Below, in pieces: positions 17,893-54,890 of a stretch of 64,000 nucleotides of DNA. Below the pieces are notes generated by a model. It made no database searches, was not told the DNA's origin, and saw only the letters and a program-made list of their open reading frames with translations. The number at the start of each line of letters is the position of its first letter. The first letter of the stretch is position 1. Source of the stretch: Acanthamoeba sp. SK_2022b (lineage: Eukaryota > Discosea > Longamoebia > Acanthamoebidae); NCBI GenBank assembly GCA_027943245.1, contig JANDJZ010000250.1, positions 1 through 64,000 on the forward strand. Reading direction: 5' to 3'. Both the position numbers and the translations under genes were made by a program.

Positions 17893-19432
17893 ATGACCGA
17901 AACCGCAACACAATACACGCCCCACCTGTCGGCCGCCACCGGCACGGAGCCCGCCGGCAGCCTCGGCGGAGTGGGCCTCTCGCCGGGCGGGGCCGTGGCC
18001 TCGACCACAGAGCAGCCCTCCAGCCGGCGGGAGGGCGAGATCAGGAACAGGGCCCGCTTCGAGGCGGCCCTGGTGGGCATCCTGGGCCCGGACATGGCGC
18101 CCCGCGGTCCCGCCGCCGGGCGCCTCTACGAGGTGTTCGTGTCGTACTTCCTCCACCAGGCCCTCCACCACGACAAGGCCCTCTCTGCCCACCGCCTCAC
18201 CCTCACCCTCCTGGGCGACCCCACGTGCGTCGACCACTCCCCCCTCCCCCCCTCCTGTCTTCCTCCTCACCTCCTCCTCTTGCGTGTCGTCTGCTGTAGG
18301 GCGCCGGAGAAGGGGCGTCGGCTCAAGTACAGCATGGCGGGGGAGGAGAGGGAGCCCAACGCCTTCCTGCAGGCCCTCCGCTCTGCGGCGGCGGCGTCCA
18401 ACGCGACAACGCCACTCTCCCTCTCGTCGTCGGCTGTCGGCGTGCCGACGCGCGTGGGCGGCACGGTGGGCGAGGGGACTCCGTTCCTCCAGTCCGACGA
18501 GAAGTTCTTCGCCATGGCCACCGCCTGGCTCGGAGGTGGCGTTCCTCCCCTTTCCCTCCTCCCCCCCTCACTCGTTATGCTGGCCTGGGGCGCCTTGCTC
18601 ACCTTCGCGAGGCGTGTGCGTGTGGCCCGAGCAGACGACCTGTGCCTGGCGTTGAAGGCGCTGCTCCGGCGTGTGAAGATCAGCTTCGTGGCCACTCGAT
18701 TCCTCGAGGAGCGAGGCAAAAAGATATGGGTATACATCTCTACACCGTCTACTTGAACATGCTGCCAACCCCCCCCCCTCCTCTCCAAACATCGATTGCG
18801 CTGACAAATGGGGCATGCGTGTGTGGTCGTCACGTCGTGGCGCGCAGGTCAACTGGGAGTGGGTGGGCTCCCGCCACGGGGACACCTCGGCCCACGAGTT
18901 GGGACCGAACGAGCGCTGGGACGCCACCGCCGTCAGCCGACAGTACAGCAGCGCGAGCGCGGCGCCGGTCCCCGCCTACCGCCCGCTGCGCATGGAGGCT
19001 GGCACGCCCGAGGAGGGCGGCCTCCGCGGCCCCGCCTCTGTTCCGGCCGCCTGCGCGCTGCCTCCCTCCGAGTCGTGGGACCAGGCGGCCACGCTCTCGA
19101 GTGGCGAGTCGCAGATGACGGCGATGTCTGTGCCACACGCCACCTACTCCCTTCCTCCTCCAACGGTGGTGGTGGCCGGCCAGCAGCCGCCGTTCGCTTC
19201 TTCGATGCCGTCCGACGTGCTGGTGAGCTATTGCTCCGCCGGCTTGACGTCCTACGAGCCCGCCGCAGCGCTCCCGCCCGAGACGGGCATCCCCGTGCTG
19301 GCGCCCGCCAAGGAGAAGCGCTCTCTTGGGCGGAAGATCACGCGGCGCTTCCACAAACTCACGCACCACCACCACCACAACCAACAGCTCCCAACATCAG
19401 CAGCAGCAGAAGCAGCAACAACAACCCAATAA
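17893..19432 (+). CDS. Unrecognised protein with histidine/alanine-rich C-terminus
   Basis: ATG at 17893 (MTETATQYTPHLSAAT) follows a GA-rich leader typical of upstream regions here. Exons read through at least four introns: RLYEVFVSYFLHQALHHDKA, APEKGRRLKYSMAGEEREPN, FLQSDEKFFAMATAWLGG, LKALLRRVKISFVATRFLEE, and a long last exon starting VNWEWVGSRHGDTS and rich in Pro, Ala and Ser, ending with a basic SLGRKITRRFHKLTHHHHH tail. I do not recognise the family; the first half looks globular and the second disordered. The last codons and stop lie inside sequence that matches 23,125 onward, so the original C-terminus may have been replaced when the 3' fragment of the MORN gene was copied here. Confidence 0.6.
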
Positions 19433-19785
19433 ACAACTGGACAGAGGTCTTGAAAGAATGCCAGGAGCAGCATTGCATTTTTCAATTCACAAATGCACAC
19501 AACTATGAACAAGTGAATGCACTCTACCATGAGGAGGAGGGAGCGAGCTAATAGCGCATGGTGGGTGCGTTAGGGCAGTCCAGAGGTCCCTCGTAGTCGG
19601 GAGCCATCCTGCGAGACCTGCTCAACAATGGTGGCATGCGGATTCCTCACCTCGTGGTCGACATCGCTGCCGTGGCGCTTGTCATCACAGTATGTTGTGA
19701 ACGATGACAGACTGTACGCGCCGCTGGCCGTAATCCCAGTGGATGTAGACGCCCCGCCTGTCGTGTTGGCGATACGCATCCCACT
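19395..19785 (-). pseudogene. Truncated copy of the 3' end of the MORN gene
   Basis: Matches 23,125-23,720 in the same orientation, with internal deletions. A 40 bp stretch at 19585-19624 (beginning CCTCGTAGTCGGGAGCCATC) is identical to 23342-23381. Flanking parts around the shared GGAGCGAGCTAATAGCGCA (stop region of the MORN frame) and CCAGTGGATGTAGACGCCCC are nearly identical. The real gene's intervening parts are shortened here and the frame is not maintained. The copy sits between the 17.9 kb gene and the effector-like gene, so that gene is bracketed by direct repeats. Confidence 0.85.
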
Positions 19786-19909: not shown

Positions 19910-22900
19910 ATGGAGACACAGAGGGAGGATATCCCAGGTGACATTCCTTCTTGTTGCCCCTTGTCTATTGTCTACTAACTCTCCTGAAAGCCTCTACAGA
20001 GAGGCCGCGGCACTACCAGTCAATCACCATCGTGCACGAGCAACGGTGCATGACGCTGAGCTCGGTCTCGGTGGCGTCAATTGAGCAATTAAGAGACGTG
20101 ATCATAAGCAAAATTGGAGGAAGCCTTGAGGGCTACAGCCTGCTCAACGTGGTCTGTTCCGAAAAACTCATCAACGAGCTGCCCCAGGAACCGGTCCTGG
20201 TGCTGCGCTTGACCCCTCCGCAGGCAAAAGGTACCTCTACCACCTTTCCTCCCTCGCTTCTTACTCTATTCAACCACCACCTTCTGCTCTGCAGAGTCGA
20301 CTCCCATCTCTGACATATCCCGAGCCTGGGTGGCGTCCTGTTTACGGCCATCCAAAAGCTATGAGAGTTACTGTCGCAGTCGAGTAAGGATGTACCTTGG
20401 GAGCAGGGTAGTCGCCCAGCTGAAAGAGTCAGCCATCGTTTCCACTACGCTGCAAGAGCTCCTATCAGTTCGTATCCCACACACCGCCTTTCGAACATGG
20501 CTTGCTGACATGCGTGGTTGCAAAGGTTTTATGCTTCGACGAAGCTGGGGTCGATTCGCGGTGGGAAGAGCTGTGCGACAGCAGCCCCCACTTCAAGGCT
20601 GCTGGTCAGCATTTGCTCAGCAGCTTCCAACACCTCGAAGCTCTGTGGGGCTGCAAAGAGCTGGCATGGGTGGCCTACTTCCTTGGGACACTGAGCCTCG
20701 GTGGGCAAGTTCCAGGCGGAAATCGGTTCACAATGGACGGGTACAGCTGATCCACATACCTTCTGACAGGTAACTCACCCATATGTCACACAAACGCAGA
20801 GATGTGGCACTTCAAGGAGCACGAGCGATCCCCCACACAACAACCAACAACTGGGTGCGACCGGACCTGGCCATCGGCATGTGTGAATCTGGCTCGAGCT
20901 GGGACAGGCTATGCGCAGGGAAGGCGATTCTCCCGCTCGACATTGTAGAGTTCAAGCGGGACCAAGCGGACAGTGAGGATGGGTGGTGCGTGAGCCTCTT
21001 CTCTTCCTCTGGTTGCATTACGGGCATTGATCGGCAACGCAATCTCACTTCTGTGTGAGGGACGTTCCAGGTATCGTTTGCTCTACACTGCAATCGTGTG
21101 TGCTTTCCACCAGATTGATCTACTCGATGCCCAACTTGATGAGGCATCCTCTACTCCATCATTCTCGGCCGCCATCCCTCTGACGCTGGCTACACGCATG
21201 AACGGAGATCATTTCCGCATGGCCTGCGTGTGGCACGTCCAGGGACGAGGCCTCCACGTCGGAGTGTTGTATGACCGGCAGATTAACAGTGTGACTGACC
21301 TGAAGCGGTGCTTTATGTTGCGCCATGAGGCCATCAACGTCGCCATCCGGTTCGGCACCATGGTGCACAACTTCGATCTCCACGATAGGAGAGGCCCACG
21401 TGCTGATTTCTGGTGGAGTCGGTTCTGCACCTGTGAGAAAGAGAAGGATGGCACGCATTACGTGCTCTGTTCAGGCTGCCAGAACTGGTTTCATCCCAAG
21501 TGCGTTGGTCTTGACATCACCAAGATTCCGCGCGGTGGGGATTGGAGCTGCCCAAAGCATAAGCGCCCCTCCAAGCTCAAGAAAGCGGAAGCCGAGCCCA
21601 AGAAAGATCGTGGACCAATAGTCACGGCGGACCCTTCTGCTTCATCGATGCTGAAGCCAATATGTCAGCTTTTCAAGGCAAGTTGTTAGCTACGTGACGA
21701 CTTTTGCGCATGTGGCGCTTTCTCTCACACACCACACAGAACTCCTCGAGCACCCTTTGGCTGTGTCACAGAGAAGTCGCTTCGGCAACGGGCGGTCGCG
21801 AGGAGGTCGTGGTGAAGCTGGTTGAATCGAGGGAACATGCAAACGAGGAAGCACGCATGCTCAGACAACTTCGCCAGGTGCCGCACGTGGCGCAACTTCT
21901 GGAGGTGATCGACTGCAGCCTGCCCGACGACACTGTCTGTTTGGGCCTTGTGATGCCCTACTACCCCCTCTCCCCCGCAGACGCTCATGGTATGTGATTC
22001 CACTCCTGCCTGCGTGCACTGTTTGGTTGGGAACCGGAGCTCTCAAGGCGTTTCCAATTGGAATTGCTCATTGGAGGTCACCGCACAGGCATCAGTTCAG
22101 CGCAGTTGGATTCGGACGCCAAATTTACACGTTACGCATGTCAACTACTCAAGGCACCACCCCGCCCACCCGCCCGCCCAGAGGATGAGTGTCGCTCAAT
22201 CAACATTGACGCATATGGGCGGACGCAGGCCCTGCATGGCGTACACGAGCGCGGGATCATACACCGTGATATCTCTCACGCCAATGTGGTGTTCACGCTC
22301 GCACGAGACCTTGATGAGGGTGGAGGAGAACTCGGCACGACGATTCTGCTCGACTTTGACCTGGCTACGGACGAAGACGCGGTGCGTGGGATCAGCCAAG
22401 ATCCGTGGGGAACCAAAGGCTACGTGGCGCCCGAGACCCTCCAATTTGGCGAGCTCAGCTGCAAAAGCGACATGTGGAGCGCTGGCGCTCTTCTTGCATT
22501 TCAGGTCAGTTAGCGTGCTCTCTGCGTTTGGCCCGCACAGCGACGCACGCCTACTCCATCGTCGTCGTCACTCATCGGCCGGCCACCAGATGCTTGGGGT
22601 GTGGCCAAGGAACGATATGGAGACGCAGACCGTGGCGCAAATGAGCCTCACCGAAGCCAAGGCGTGGGTGCAGCAGCTGGACCCTGCCAGATGGTACATG
22701 CCTCATCTCTCCTTCTCTCTTCTTGCGCTTACATGCACTTGCGTCAGCATAACTACATGTTCTCCCGTCCTTAAACCATCATCACCACCATCACCAATAA
22801 GGTGGTGGAAAGCGGTTCCATCGCCCTATCTGACCGAGGGGCGGTGGACATTGGTGCGGGGCATGCTGACTGTCGACCCTGAGGCGCGCCTCGACGCGGC

Positions 22901-22988
22901 CTCCGCCCTCCACCGGTTCGACGCGTGCTGGTCCCATGCCGGCACCTTCACCAAGCAGTCAACCTCGCCCCAGCACCACGCCAAGTGA
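19910..22988 (+). CDS. Crinkler-like effector: ubiquitin-like header, PD-(D/E)xK nuclease-like domain, PHD finger and protein kinase
   Basis: Eleven exons fit without a stop: 19910-19937, 20000-20230, 20295-20467, 20526-20740, 20800-20985, 21071-21677, 21740-21989, 22089-22153, 22229-22504, 22590-22693, 22802-22988, giving 773 residues. Residues about 17-84 look like a beta-grasp header (YQSITIVHEQRCMTL, VLVLRLTPP). A nuclease-like core has RPDLAIG (D238) and DIVEFKRD (E266, K268), then helix YRLLYTAIVCAFHQ. Residues 397-441 form a zinc finger of PHD type (C-x-C, CSGC, HPKC, CPKH). The kinase has K506, IIHRDISHAN (D599, N604), DFD instead of DFG (627-629), GTKGYVAPE and MLTVDPEARLDA. Two introns start with GC. 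Nuclease plus HRDIS-type kinase behind a Ubl header is the plan of Crinkler/CR-type effectors; I infer a role in conflict or host interaction. No signal peptide is seen. Confidence 0.75.
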
Positions 22989-22999
22989 GCCGCAATATA

Positions 23000-23165
23000 A
23001 GCGGAAGGAACCATCAGAGTGATGGGATGGACGGAAAGCTTTCTGGCAAACGCAACGAGGACGCCCTCTCTAAGACTCTGCTTCTTGCCTTTGGAGTTCA
23101 TGATTTCTTCACGCAATACCACGCAGCAGCAGCAGCAGCAGCAGAAGCAGCAACAACCAAATAAA
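23000..23165 (+). pseudogene. Fragment of a PP2C phosphatase gene
   Basis: The frame reads GKRNEDALSKTLLLAFGVHD, the conserved N-terminal PP2C block with the N-E-D metal motif and the FGVxD strand, and then runs into CAG repeats and a stop. CAAACGCAACGAGGACGCCCT also occurs at 27991 in the complete PP2C gene, so this is probably a truncated duplicate. It lies just after the effector-like gene and abuts the start of the MORN-end repeat. Confidence 0.7.
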
Positions 23166-23285
23166 CAACTGGACAGAGATCTTGAAGAGGGAAGCAGGAC
23201 TGTAGTTGTTTCTTTTTTCACAAATGCACAACTTTTATGAACAAGAGAATGTACACGACCATGCCAAGGTCGAGGAGGGAGCGAG

Positions 23286-24184
23286 CTAATAGCGCAGGGT
23301 GTGGGTGCGATAGGGCAGCCCGGAGGGGGACATCATGGGGACCTCGTAGTCGGGAGCCATCCTGCGAGACCTGCTCAACAAAGAGTCAAGTTAATGTTTG
23401 TTTTGAAAAACAAAAAGCACGTGGTGGCAATTTTCCTCTCCACGTACCTCTGCAGCGCGCCTTCTTTGTACTCCACGAGCAAGCGGTCGCCGCCGGTATA
23501 GTGGGTGTCGGTGACCAGCACGCCATCGCTGCCGTGGCGCTTGTCTGTGGCAGATGTGCGCACGGCGACGATGAGAAGACTGCGCGAGAACGAGTAGACA
23601 GCCCCCCCCCCCAAAACCACCGCAGGAGGGAGAACGCTGGTGGTGGTAGAGACGCGCACCGTTGCGATAGTGCCCGTAGTACCGCTGGCCGTCATCCCAG
23701 TGGATGTAGACGCCCCGCCCGTTGCGTTTGTCGTCTCGCCAGTGGCCGTCGAACACATCGCCGACGGCAAACACCATGCGGCCGTTGCCACAGCGCTTGT
23801 CGTCTCGCCACTGGCCGTCGTAGCGCCTCCCGTCGGTCCAGCGCAGGGCTCCCATTCCGTGCCGCTTGCCCCCTTTCGTGTTTTTGCCGGCGCGCGCCAG
23901 AGCGAGCGTGAGCACCACCACTGTGAGAAGCGGAAAGAGGAGAGGAGAGGAGAGGAGAGAGGAGGCCCTCGTCATCCTCTGTCCGGGCGGTGAGGTTACC
24001 TTGCCAGTGGCCCTGGTACTTGGTCCCATCGGCCTCGACGTAGGAGCCGGGCCCGTCGGCCTTGTTCTCGCGCCACGAGCCCTCGTACGTGTCGCCGTCC
24101 GAGTAGACCATGAAGCCCTTGCCCCATCGCATGCCGTCCTGCTCCCCCCCGCGCGGGTCGTTGAGTCACCCGAGGCATGGCCTC

Positions 24185-50899: not shown

Positions 50900-52190
50900 G
50901 CCAGAAACAGATCATGAACACAAACAACGACGTGCCAATAAAGGTGGGAGGGGGTGCAGAAGGAGAGGAAGGTGTAAAAGAGGAAGAAGGACAAGGTGTG
51001 GCCAAGTGAAGGAGCGCGACTGTTGAGGAATTTGGGTGCCAGCTTTAGAGGCACTGCTACTAATCATGCACCTCTGTCACCACAAAAATGCCTGCCATCT
51101 GGTCATGTGTGAGCATGTGATGTTGATGGCTTCTTGCATTTCTCTCTACCATCATGAATGCAATGCTCATGCACCTCTGTCACCACAAAAATGCCCACCA
51201 TGTGGGCAAGTGCATACAAAAATGCTCATGCACTGCTTCACCACAAATATGCCTGCCACCTGGATGTGATGTTGATGGTCTTCTTGGCATTCTCTGTGCT
51301 CTACCATCATATATGTGTACATTATGCTCATGCACCTCCTTCACCACAACAAAGCCTGCAATTTGGTCTTCATGACATATATGCTTGCTATACCATCACA
51401 TATGCATACACAATGCTCATGCACCTCCTTCACCACAAGGCTTAGGAGTAAAGGTTGAATTGGAAAGACTATGTTGTCACCCAGTGACCATGGATGGGAT
51501 TACAACATTGAACATGGTGCAAAGCAAAGAGCATATGCATTAGCTATCCTCAAAGGATGGATCCCATTTGAGAAGTGTCTGAAGATGAGTTGAGTGCCAT
51601 GTCTGTAGCTCAGCTCTGCTTTGAAGGCTCGCAGCGGTGGCAGGGAGTGGAAGCGGTGGATCAGAGGGAGAGGAGGAAGTCAGGCAAGAGCCTCAGGCTA
51701 CAGAGGTGACTACAATCCCTTCAAGGATGTGGCACACCTGCTCAGCTATGTTGCTGCTGACTTACTACCTGTCTCCAAGGCCTTGATGCATGTTGAGGGG
51801 CTCACAGCTGCCATTGTTGTGGGTAGCCACAAGGGCTGGGGCAGAGCTACCCACAATGACAATGTGGAGCACTCCTTCCTTGGGCTTCAGTGGAAGGATG
51901 CCATTGCTGAGGCCCAACTATTTGAAGGGGCCAGGCTTGGCAAAGGGATGCTTCTGCTGGCATTGCTGACATCAGGCCAAACTGAAAAAACAAGAGGCCC
52001 TTGCCCTTGGTCTCAGCCTTGTGCTTGTGTTGCCACACCTGCCAGCCAGCCGCCTATGGTCTTGTCTGATTGAGAGAGAATGTAGCAGAAGTGAAGGGAG
52101 GGTCAGGCAGAGTGATTCAGGCTCCTCTTCATCCTTTGCTAAGTGTGCTAATAAACTCCTGTTTGTATGACTCTGAGTAAGCAATATAAG
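50900..52190. other. CpG-poor intergenic block with degenerate tandem units and a decayed frame
   Basis: CpG is scarce from about 51,020 on. Positions 51,050-51,440 contain four or five imperfect units of roughly 100 bp built on ATGCTCATGCACCTC, TCACCACAA and TGTGATGTTGATGG, with no coding logic. At 51,621-52,073 a (+) frame includes a protein-like part (YNPFKDVAHLLSYVAADLLP, then VEGLTAAIVVGSHKGWG) that I cannot assign; it may be a gene relic. The block resembles 1.5-5.0 kb in composition. Confidence 0.6.
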
Positions 52191-54890
52191 TGGTGTTGTG
52201 GTGGTGTTGTGGTGGTGCTGTGGTTGTGGTGTGGTGGTGTTGTGGTGGTGATGGTGTGGTGAGGTTGCGGTGTGGTGGTGTGATGCTGTGGTTTGGTGGT
52301 CAGGTTGGTGTGGTGGTGATGGTGTGGTGATGTTGTGGTGATGTTGTGGTGGTGCTGGTGTGGTAGTGTGTATTAGTGGTAGTGGTGGTGTGGTTGTGTG
52401 CGTGGTGGTGTTGTGGTGCTGTGGTGTAGTGGTGGTAGTGTGTGGTGTTGTGATGATCGTGTGGTGATGTGGTGGTGTGGTGGTTTAGTGTGGTGTGGTG
52501 ATGTGGTGTGGTATGTGGTGATGTTGTGGTGGTGTTGTGGTGGTGGTGTGGTGGTGATGTTGTGGTGTTGTGGTGATGGTGCTGTGGTGTTGTTGTTGTG
52601 GGGTTGTGGTGTTGTGGTGGTGTTTTGGTGATGGTGGTAGTGTTGGTGTTGTGTTGTGATGTTGTGGTGATGTTGTGTTGTGGTGGTGTTGTGGTGATGT
52701 TGTAGTGTGTTGTGGTGTTGTGGTGGTATTGTGTGTTGTGGTGATGTGGTGTTATGGTGTTGTTGTGATGTGATGTTTTGGTGTTGTGATGTGGTGGTGT
52801 TGTGGTGTTGTGGAGTTTGTGTGGTGTTGTGGTGTTGTTGTTGTGGAGTTGTTGAGATGGTGTTGTGGTGTTGGTGTGGTGGTGGTGTTGTGGTGTTGGT
52901 GTGGTGGCGGTTGTGGTGGTGTTGTGGTGGTGTTGTGGTGATGGTGTGATGTTGTGGCGGTGTGGTGGCGTGGTTGATGTTGTGGGGTGTTGTGATGATG
53001 TTGTGGTGGTGTTGTGGTGGTGTTGTGGTGATGGTGTGATGTTGTGGCGGTGTGGTGGCGTGGTTGATGTTGTGGGGTGTTGTGATGATGTTGTGGTGGT
53101 GGTGGGGTATTGTTTTGGTGTTGTGATGATGTTGTGGTGGTGGTGTGATGGTGGTGGTGTGATGGTGGTGGTGGTAGTGTGGGGATGTTGTTGTTGGTTG
53201 TTGTTGTTGTTGGTTGTTGTTGATGATGATGATACTGTTTTTTGGGTGGTGGTGTTGTGGTGTGGTGGTGTTTTTGTGATGTGGAGATGTCGTGTTGGGG
53301 TGGAGTTGTGGTGTTGTGGTGGCATGGGGTGGTGTATTGTTGCTGTGGTGTGGTGTGGTGTTGTGAGGATGTGATATGTGATATGTTGTGGTGTTGTGAC
53401 ATCACCACAAATCTCCCAACACCATTACATCATCCAACCACACTACCACAACACCACAACACCATACCACCAACACCACACCATTACCACAGCACACCAG
53501 CACCACAAAATCTCCACAACACCACCCAACATCACCACAACAACACCACAACACCACAACATCATGTGGTGGTAATGTTGTGTTAGTGATGATGGTTTGG
53601 TGCTGTGGTGGCGGTGTTGTTGTGGTGTTGGTGTTGTGGTGATGGTTTTTTTGTAGTTGTGGTGTTGTTGTGGTGTTGGTGTGGTGGTGATGTTATGGTG
53701 TCAGGTGGTGGTGGTGGTGGTCAGGTGATGGTAGTAAGGTGGTGGTGGTTAGGTGGTGGTGGTCAGGTGGTGTTGTGGTGGTTGGTTGTGGTGTGGTGGT
53801 GTTGTGGTGATGGTGTTGTGATGATGGTGTGATGATGTTGTGGTGGATCATGGGGGTGTTTGTGTTGTGGTGATGTTGTTGTGGTGGTGTGGTGGTGTAG
53901 TGGTGATGTTGTGGTGGTGGTGATGTTGTGGTGATATGTGTGGTGGTGATGTTGTGGTATGTGTGGTGATGATGTTGTGGTGATGTGGTGGTGGTGTGTG
54001 GTGATGTGGTGGTGTGGTGTTGTGGTGGTGTTGTAGTGGTCATGTTGTTGTGGTGATGTTGTGGTGGTGTGGTGGTGTTGTAGTGGTGTTATGCTGTTGT
54101 GGTGTGGTGTTGTTGGTGATGGTGGTTATGTGGAAATGTTGTTGTGGTGTTGAGGTGATGGTGTGGTGTGGTGATGTGGTGATAGGGTGTTGTGGTGACC
54201 TTCTGGTGGTGATGTTGTGGTGTTGTGGAGGTGTTGTGGAGGTCGTGGTGTTGTTGGTGAGGATGGTGTGGTGATGTTGTGGTGGTGTGGTGGTGTGGTG
54301 GTGTGTGGTGGTGTTGTGGTGTCGTGGTGATGATATGGTGGTGATGTTGGTGTGGATGGTGATATAAACAAAATTGATGATTCCAGCTGATATGCATTTT
54401 CTGTGGGCAATGCAGGACAATGGCTGAGCTGGATTCACCACACCATTACCACCACAACAACACCATAACATCACTACAATATCACCACAAAACCGCCACA
54501 ACACCACACCATCATCATGATAGCACAACACCACCAGAAAACCAAAACATCACCACAACACTACCACAACAACACCACAACACCATCACAACAATCATCA
54601 CCACAACAACACCACAACATCTCCATCACTACAACAACAAAACAACAACACCACCACATCTCCATCACCACAACTCCACATCATCACCACACCATCTCAA
54701 CAACCACACCACAACTACACCACAACTACACCACCACAACATTACCACAACAACACCACAACACCATCACAACATCATCACAACTCCACAACAGCACCAC
54801 CATCATCACAACACAACATCACCACAACACCACACCAACATTGCAACAACATCACCATCAAAACACCACAACAACATCACCAACAACACT
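52190..54890. repeat. Large GTT/GTG-type satellite with strand-polarity switches
   Basis: About 2.7 kb built almost only of TGGTGTTG-, TGGTGATG- and TGTTGTGG-like units. The top strand is G/T-rich from 52,190 to 53,400, C/A-rich (CACCACAAC) from 53,401 to 53,563, G/T-rich again to about 54,355, interrupted by a short unique spacer at 54,360-54,430, then C/A-rich to about 54,885. Two pieces near 52,965-53,095 are an exact-looking internal duplication (unit about 72 bp). The switches make long imperfect inverted repeats. Long open frames here have no biological meaning. Confidence 0.85.

What the first reader, a model, noticed from the sequence alone, without database searches (positions are those of the whole stretch)
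19910..22988. Four-domain effector-like gene: Ubl-type header, PD-(D/E)xK nuclease-like core, PHD finger, HRDIS kinase
Seen: an 11-exon model with no internal stop and an exact multiple of three (773 residues) holds D238...E266-x-K268, a C-x-C/CSGC/HPKC/CPKH zinc finger and a kinase with K506, D599, N604 and a DFD variant. Known: Crinkler/CR-type effectors of oomycetes, chytrids and other eukaryotes combine a ubiquitin-like header with restriction-endonuclease-like and kinase domains. Inference: this is an amoebal member, and the PHD finger between nuclease and kinase is an unusual chromatin-reading addition. It could be a nuclear effector against intracellular rivals or a selfish-element product.
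Basis: partly seen in the sequence, partly recalled or inferred. Interest (0 to 1): 0.87.

Follow-up and report, generated by a model that had tools for sequence, protein, structure and literature searches.

The report
Amoeba nuclease-like, PHD finger, kinase gene
An amoeba gene that belongs to a small family whose proteins join a nuclease-like part, a chromatin-reader-type zinc finger and a kinase, a layout much like that of fungal spore-killer proteins that poison cells and carry their own antidote; what it does in the amoeba is untested.

Summary
The gene is real. The nuclease-like/PHD/kinase order recurs at nine other loci of this Acanthamoeba genome: six open, one interrupted by a young copia-type element, two decayed. 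Shared intron positions, dN/dS below 1 and agreeing nuclease-like and kinase trees make it one gene. PHD finger and kinase are firm. The ubiquitin-like header has a moderate fold match and was seen in 4 of 9 loci looked at. The nuclease reading rests on motif, order and position: no library matched it, and the first Asp is missing in 4 of 8 non-decayed copies while five kinase residues are kept in 8 of 8. The PHD resembles H3K4me3 readers, with three of four BPTF cage positions aromatic. Order and a zinc motif before the kinase match fungal SPOK spore killers and REase-kinase Crinkler-type proteins. I propose a chromatin-docked DNA-damaging protein with a built-in kinase restraint: a new variant of a known kind, function untested.

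The parts
19910..22988 (+). Whole coding span, 11 exons: 19910-19937, 19991-20230, 20295-20467, 20526-20740, 20800-20985, 21071-21677, 21740-21989, 22089-22153, 22229-22504, 22590-22693, 22802-22988 (stop included); 776 aa
20008..20226 (+). Header, residues 16-88, beta-grasp (ubiquitin/PB1-like), encoded in exon 2
20700..21419 (+). PD-(D/E)xK nuclease-like region, residues about 206-397 across exons 4, 5 and 6 (introns included in the span); the conserved E192 lies just before it
   Evidence: motif and conservation only; no relevant library match:
20864..20866 (+).
20948..20956 (+).
21426..21560 (+). PHD finger, residues 400-444 (C400 C402 C414 C417 H422 C425 C441 H444); aromatic positions F399, Y411, W420
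21561..21677 (+). Lysine-rich linker after the PHD finger (residues 445-483), nuclear-signal-like by eye
   Evidence: sequence; dN/dS 0.47 (NG86) or 0.80 (YN00); signal not tested
21740..22937 (+). Protein kinase domain, residues 484-760 (K509, E520, D602, N607, DFD at 630-632, APE); introns included in the span
19392..19767 (.). Left copy of a local duplication that flanks the gene: decayed copy of the intergenic end and parts of the neighbouring MORN-repeat gene
23124..23728 (.). Right copy of the same duplication (3' part of the downstream minus-strand MORN-repeat gene), 79% identical over 261 columns plus two short blocks

Best explanation
The gene is one of a duplicating and dying family in an Acanthamoeba genome, encoding a protein with a beta-grasp header, a PD-(D/E)xK-type nuclease-like domain, an H3K4me3-reader-type PHD finger and a FunK1-like kinase. 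Proposed working: the PHD finger docks the protein on active chromatin, the nuclease domain damages DNA, and the kinase (with the zinc module before it) holds that activity in check in cells that carry the gene, as the kinase and cysteine cluster of fungal SPOK proteins do. Shown here: architecture, its conservation, selection, the kinase and PHD assignments. Inferred: nuclease activity, histone binding, nuclear place, self-restraint, and any selfish or defensive use.
For: Same order at several loci with shared introns; dN/dS by domain, window against C260, NG86: header 0.39, nuclease-like 0.22, PHD 0.27, kinase 0.22; nuclease-like and kinase trees agree, no sign of domain swapping. Pfam PHD listed in 7 of 7 copies scanned (E up to 10; window 7.5e-9); zinc ligands kept in 8 of 8 non-decayed copies; best single-sequence PDB match is BPTF (E 2.4e-6), and BPTF Y10/Y17/Y23/W32 align with F399/K406/Y411/W420 (that these BPTF residues form the cage is recalled). 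K509, E520, D602, N607 and D630 kept in 8 of 8; FunK1 model at or over cut-off in 4 of 4 kinase regions scanned, of 8 available. SPOK3 has the order nuclease, cysteine cluster, kinase; the nuclease Lys is needed to kill, the kinase Asp and the cysteines to resist; SPOK1 acts on DNA in E. coli and yeast; for the oomycete REase-kinase protein CRN8 the review reports that REase mutations, not loss of kinase function, abolish cell death. D241 is missing in 4 of 8 non-decayed copies, at least three separate losses on the tree if Asp was ancestral, while the five kinase residues are never lost: the pattern that resistance-only copies would leave.
Against: No statistical support for the nuclease fold. 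D241 varies (D, H, G) and K271 is T in C532, so several copies may not cut DNA; yet the domain stays constrained even between copies with and without D241 (C1057/C395 0.38, window/C260 0.22), which also suits a non-catalytic DNA-binding or scaffold role. Other invariant Asp residues (D218, D266) could be the metal ligand, in which case D241 says little. No direct homology to SPOK could be tested, as no fungal SPOK sequence was within reach. The PHD spacing differs from SPOK's cysteine cluster. The FunK1 match covers only about 70 positions around the catalytic loop. The kinase has no standard glycine-rich loop. The header is missing or too diverged to see in 5 of 9 loci. Nothing here bears on expression, location or toxicity.
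Confidence: 0.4

Rival explanations
1. Crinkler/CR-type effector or defence protein: the header delivers the protein into another cell or compartment (competitor, prey, endosymbiont or giant virus factory) and the nuclease attacks foreign DNA there, with the kinase tuning it.
For: The order Ubl-type header, REase, kinase equals one of the common CR architectures described in the review section read; CR proteins occur in free-living eukaryotes; amoebae meet many intracellular rivals (general knowledge).
Against: Header seen in only 4 of 9 loci looked at, so delivery by it is probably not a family trait; no Pfam match for the header, Crinkler included; an H3K4me3-type PHD points to eukaryotic chromatin, the amoeba's own or another eukaryote's, rather than to bacteria or viruses.
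Confidence: 0.25
2. Endogenous chromatin-signalling kinase: the PHD brings a protein kinase to active promoters; the nuclease-like domain is a retired fold kept as a DNA-binding scaffold.
For: Kinase residues intact in 8 of 8 copies; D241 lost repeatedly; low dN/dS in PHD and kinase.
Against: E192 and E269 are kept in 8 of 8 and K271 in 7 of 8 non-decayed copies (C880 counted by its N-terminal piece); three of ten loci are broken, unlike core signalling genes.
Confidence: 0.25
3. The model is a chance or artefactual fusion: nuclease-like plus PHD part and kinase are two adjacent genes.
For: Intron 6 has a GC donor, and a stop follows at 21687-21689 if it is not spliced.
Against: Same junction and intron at 484/phase 0 in 7 of 8 copies; environmental P0021 reads across it in frame; nuclease-like and kinase trees agree.
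Confidence: 0.04

Closest known systems
SPOK spore-killer proteins (Podospora and other fungi)
   Same: PD-(D/E)xK domain, then a zinc-type cysteine motif, then a kinase; similar length; several copies; copies that lack killing through changes in the nuclease domain but keep resistance are known (SPOK facts: passages and one discussion section seen).
   Different: SPOK starts with a coiled coil and an unassigned domain, not a beta-grasp header; its cysteine cluster (C-x3-C-x13-C-x5-H-x7-H) is not a PHD finger; no sequence homology tested; drive not shown here.
CR (Crinkler-RHS-type) proteins with REase plus kinase, such as the CRN8 type
   Same: Ubl-type header; REase-superfamily domain coupled to a kinase.
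   Different: No header match to a Pfam model; PHD finger between nuclease and kinase; PHD is not named among the CR domains in the review section read; Zhang et al. 2016 itself is not held.
FunK1 fungal kinases (PF17667)
   Same: Kinase passes the curated cut-off; family loci give 7 of the 15 FunK1 matches listed for this genome (21 candidates scored) and 5 of the 7 over the cut-off.
   Different: General Pkinase scores higher (84.2 against 32.7 bits); only the catalytic-loop part of the model is matched.
PHD fingers of BPTF, PHF2, TAF3 and ING proteins
   Same: Zinc ligands, Y411 and W420 kept in 8 of 8 copies, BPTF as best PDB match of the window's finger, ING3, ING1, TAF3 and ING4 as best of the family profile.
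   Different: Last zinc ligand is His in the window copy and three close copies (Cys in the other four); one of four cage positions is Lys.

Membership tests
PHD finger (PF00628) | Profile match over curated cut-off | tested here: met
   35.9 bits against 24 for the window protein; match listed in 7 of 7 copies scanned at E up to 10
PHD finger (PF00628) | Eight zinc ligands (C4HC3) | tested here: met
   kept in 8 of 8 non-decayed copies, eighth ligand His in 4 and Cys in 4; the first two Cys are adjacent in C1057 and C395
H3K4me3-reading PHD | Aromatic cage | tested here: inconclusive
   three of four BPTF cage positions aromatic in the window copy; binding not testable here
Eukaryotic protein kinase | Profile match and catalytic K, E, D, N, D | tested here: met
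   Pkinase 1.3e-23; residues kept in 8 of 8
FunK1 (PF17667) | Curated cut-off | tested here: met
   32.7 bits against 24.1; 4 of 4 kinase regions scanned at or over it, one exactly at it
PD-(D/E)xK nuclease superfamily | Asp, Glu, Lys active site | tested here: inconclusive
   present in the window copy; D241 lost in 4 of 8, K271 in 1 of 8 non-decayed copies
PD-(D/E)xK nuclease superfamily | Restriction-endonuclease core fold | tested here: inconclusive
   no relevant sequence match; allowed exon-6 model too poor
CR (Crinkler) proteins | Ubl-type header | tested here: inconclusive
   beta-grasp model with Ubl, SUMO and PB1 matches; no Pfam match; header in 4 of 9 loci looked at
CR (Crinkler) proteins | Translocation into another cell or nucleus | not testable with these tools
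   needs experiment
SPOK | Order nuclease, cysteine cluster, kinase | tested here: inconclusive
   same order of parts against the description, but the nuclease assignment is itself inferred
SPOK | SPOK cysteine motif C-x3-C-x13-C-x5-H-x7-H | tested here: not met
   window has a PHD finger with other spacing
SPOK | Sequence homology to SPOK proteins | not tested
   no SPOK sequence was at hand to compare; the three protein searches returned none named so
SPOK | Killing and resistance in crosses | not testable with these tools
   needs experiment

The most novel reading that the evidence does not exclude
A single-protein poison-antidote element in Amoebozoa: a chromatin-reading PHD finger aims a self-restrained nuclease at active genes, so that cells or nuclei losing the gene are harmed; copies that lost the nuclease Asp but keep the kinase are resistance-only members, as in SPOK systems.
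Probability: 0.17. Interest if true: 0.87.

Novelty: new variant of a known kind. Interest (0 to 1): 0.56.

Why it matters
In the papers I saw, the poison and antidote parts of such a nuclease-kinase protein were taken apart by experiment only for fungal SPOK proteins. A free-living amoeba with several genes of this layout, with an H3K4me3-type reader in the place of SPOK's cysteine cluster, would show that the design reaches beyond fungi and may be aimed at chromatin. It also gives a natural series of copies with and without the catalytic Asp but with intact kinase residues, in which the idea of resistance-only members can be tested.

Tried and rejected
Two separate genes: rejected on shared introns, agreeing trees and P0021. 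Viral origin: two scans of viral contigs found no relative; prokaryotic relatives of the nuclease-like part: none in one scan of genome contigs. These scans start from only one or two short peptide patterns, so they are weak negatives. Relatives in 5.8 billion proteins: the full-length search gave 19 hits, all with a kinase domain; the N-terminal part gave none at E up to 10 among the 7995 candidates scored, a capped list; the family alignment gave 3 environmental fragments. C628, a FunK1 match, shows no nuclease-like or PHD part. Relaxed constraint on the nuclease-like part of copies without D241: not seen. A flanking-repeat scar as a family trait: seen only at the window copy, in 0 of 6 other open copies within the 0.9-1.8 kb of flank held. 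Papers: searches for Crinkler with Acanthamoeba, FunK1 with nuclease, Crinkler with PHD finger, FunK1/kinase/Acanthamoeba, spore killer with PHD, Acanthamoeba with meiotic drive, and REase/kinase/CRN/ubiquitin-like showed, in their listings, no description of this architecture; passages of the A. castellanii genome paper hold no mention of Crinkler, FunK1 or PHD. Only open-licence papers are held, and Zhang et al. 2016 is not, so whether it already lists amoebal REase-PHD-kinase proteins is open. The exon-6 fold was too poor to search. The sigma-70 style promoter scan does not suit this organism and was not used; the Rfam scan gave nothing.

Full report
What was checked. I rebuilt the gene from its splice sites. 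With ATG at 19910 and stop at 22986-22988, 11 exons give an open frame of 776 residues. Introns 6 and 8 begin with GC rather than GT. The acceptor of exon 8 can be 22077, 22089 or 22101 without breaking the frame, a difference of a few residues in a kinase loop.

Organism. The window lies in a 45 Mb, 1129-contig genome. One of its profilins equals PDB 1f2k, profilin II, at 119 of 125 positions by my count of the alignment; I recall that chain as Acanthamoeba, the call does not name the organism. With the GC content and dense introns this makes it an Acanthamoeba species; I do not name which.

Is it more than chance? The N-terminal 398 residues find relatives exon by exon in the same genome, and a search with a relative adds one decayed locus. 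In all, ten loci: the window (C421), C260, C850, C1057, C395, C524 and C532 read open in my models; C880 is interrupted in exon 6 by an element with two identical 223-base terminal repeats, about 5.5 kb in all, a reverse transcriptase matching Pfam RVT_2 (copia type by recall) and, by eye, a short target-site duplication; C47 (six stops) and C379 (three stops) are decayed. For C850, C524, C532 and C880 the first exons are not resolved, so 'open' means from about residue 110-150 on. The models of the more distant copies also hold some extra introns that are probably wrong, for instance inside the header of C1057 and C395, where the frame runs on without them. Searches of this genome score only the best candidates, so ten is a lower bound.

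One gene. Introns at residues 219 (phase 2), 281 (2), 589 (0) and 681 (0) are shared by 8 of 8 copies that cover them; 484 (0), between PHD finger and kinase, by 7 of 8, C524 being modelled at 480. The aligner takes relatives as templates, which leans to shared boundaries; but the boundaries need real splice dinucleotides in each copy. P0021, an environmental protein of 325 residues, runs from the nuclease-like region through the PHD finger into the kinase without a stop, the intron being read through. Trees of the nuclease-like part and the kinase agree in their well supported groups: window, C260 and (kinase only) C880, then C850, then C1057 with C395, and C524 with C532 and C47; the order among window, C260 and C880 is unresolved, and the short PHD tree is weak and places C850 and C524 with low support.

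Selection. Window against C260 (NG86): header 0.39, linker 89-205 0.60, nuclease-like 0.22, PHD 0.27, linker 446-483 0.47, kinase 0.22, whole 0.30. YN00 gave 0.48, 0.78, 0.27, 0.32, 0.80, 0.20 and 0.31. C1057 against C395 (NG86): 0.49, 0.37, 0.38, 0.28, 0.38, 0.32, whole 0.37; its header codons come from the doubtful models. YN00 failed for several pairs, and some values for C524 against C532 are undefined through saturation. Every value obtained is below 1; the linkers are the least constrained.

Domains. PHD: Pfam 35.9 bits against a cut-off of 24, kinase 84.2 against 31.7, FunK1 32.7 against 24.1. The part before the PHD finger has no Pfam match in the window protein. A profile of the family's nuclease-like region finds nothing relevant in PDB (two rows of a decarboxylase at E 1), nothing in Pfam and only four unnamed PHROG rows, one member each, best E 0.016. 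The nuclease reading therefore rests on R239-P-D241, the strand P264-x-D266-x-x-E269-x-K271, the invariant E192 upstream, and the order of parts. D266 and D218 are invariant as well, so the metal-binding Asp could be one of these. D241 is D in the window, C880, C850 and C1057 (and in the decayed C47), H in C260, G in C395, C524 and C532; K271 is T in C532. That similar RPD...W...ExK strings occur in fungal FunK1 proteins is recall, not a test.

PHD finger. The family profile ranks ING3, ING1, TAF3 and ING4 first, with BPTF eighth; the window's finger alone ranks BPTF first. BPTF positions Y10, Y17, Y23 and W32 align with F399, K406, Y411 and W420. Y411 and W420 are kept in 8 of 8 non-decayed copies; position 399 is F or Y in 6 of 8.

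How it may work. In SPOK3 a PD-(D/E)xK domain is followed by a cysteine cluster and a kinase; the nuclease Lys is needed for killing, the kinase Asp and the cysteines for resistance (passages of PMC6660238). SPOK1 damages DNA in E. coli and yeast (discussion section of PMC9972908). PMC12693581 (passages) calls nuclease plus kinase a widely distributed architecture. The CRN review (PMC5289972, section 11 and passages) reports that REase plus kinase makes up about one sixth of CR C-termini, that headers are often Ubl-like, and that in CRN8 the REase part rather than kinase function is needed for cell death. The window protein has the same order of parts. I therefore propose a chromatin-docked nuclease restrained by its own kinase. 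The repeated loss of D241 with kinase residues that are never lost fits resistance-only copies, but three or four events are few, and constraint on the nuclease-like domain is not visibly relaxed, so a scaffold role remains open.

Surroundings. The gene sits between two copies of a convergent intergenic region (19392-19628 and 23124-23381, 79% identical) plus short blocks of the downstream MORN-repeat gene; a search of the genome with the right copy finds only these two. It looks like a scar of the gene's arrival or of a local duplication. The six other open copies show no such repeats in the 0.9-1.8 kb of flank held, and DNA likeness between copies stops near the ends of the gene.

Verdict. 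The closest working parallel is SPOK; membership in SPOK is not claimed, because its cysteine motif is not met and homology was not testable. New variant of a known kind.

Noticed in passing
L049 (G000:C880:7900-14400): A copy of the family is interrupted in exon 6 by an LTR element of about 5.5 kb with two identical 223-base terminal repeats and an RVT_2 reverse transcriptase, so the insertion is young.
   Followed up: partly
L066 (G000:C379:64859-65868) and L047 (G000:C47): Two decayed copies of the family with three and six in-frame stops.
   Followed up: partly
window 19392-19767 and 23124-23728: Imperfect direct repeats around the gene, a local duplication of the end of a MORN-repeat gene and its intergenic region.
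   Followed up: partly
window 52190-54889: 2.7 kb of degenerate GTGGTGTT-type repeats that turn into CACCACAACAA-type repeats at about 54450; the 52-54 kb part has extreme strand skew.
   Followed up: no
P0020, P0021, P0022: Environmental proteins 55-75% identical to the PHD-bearing part: the family occurs in other, unsampled relatives.
   Followed up: no
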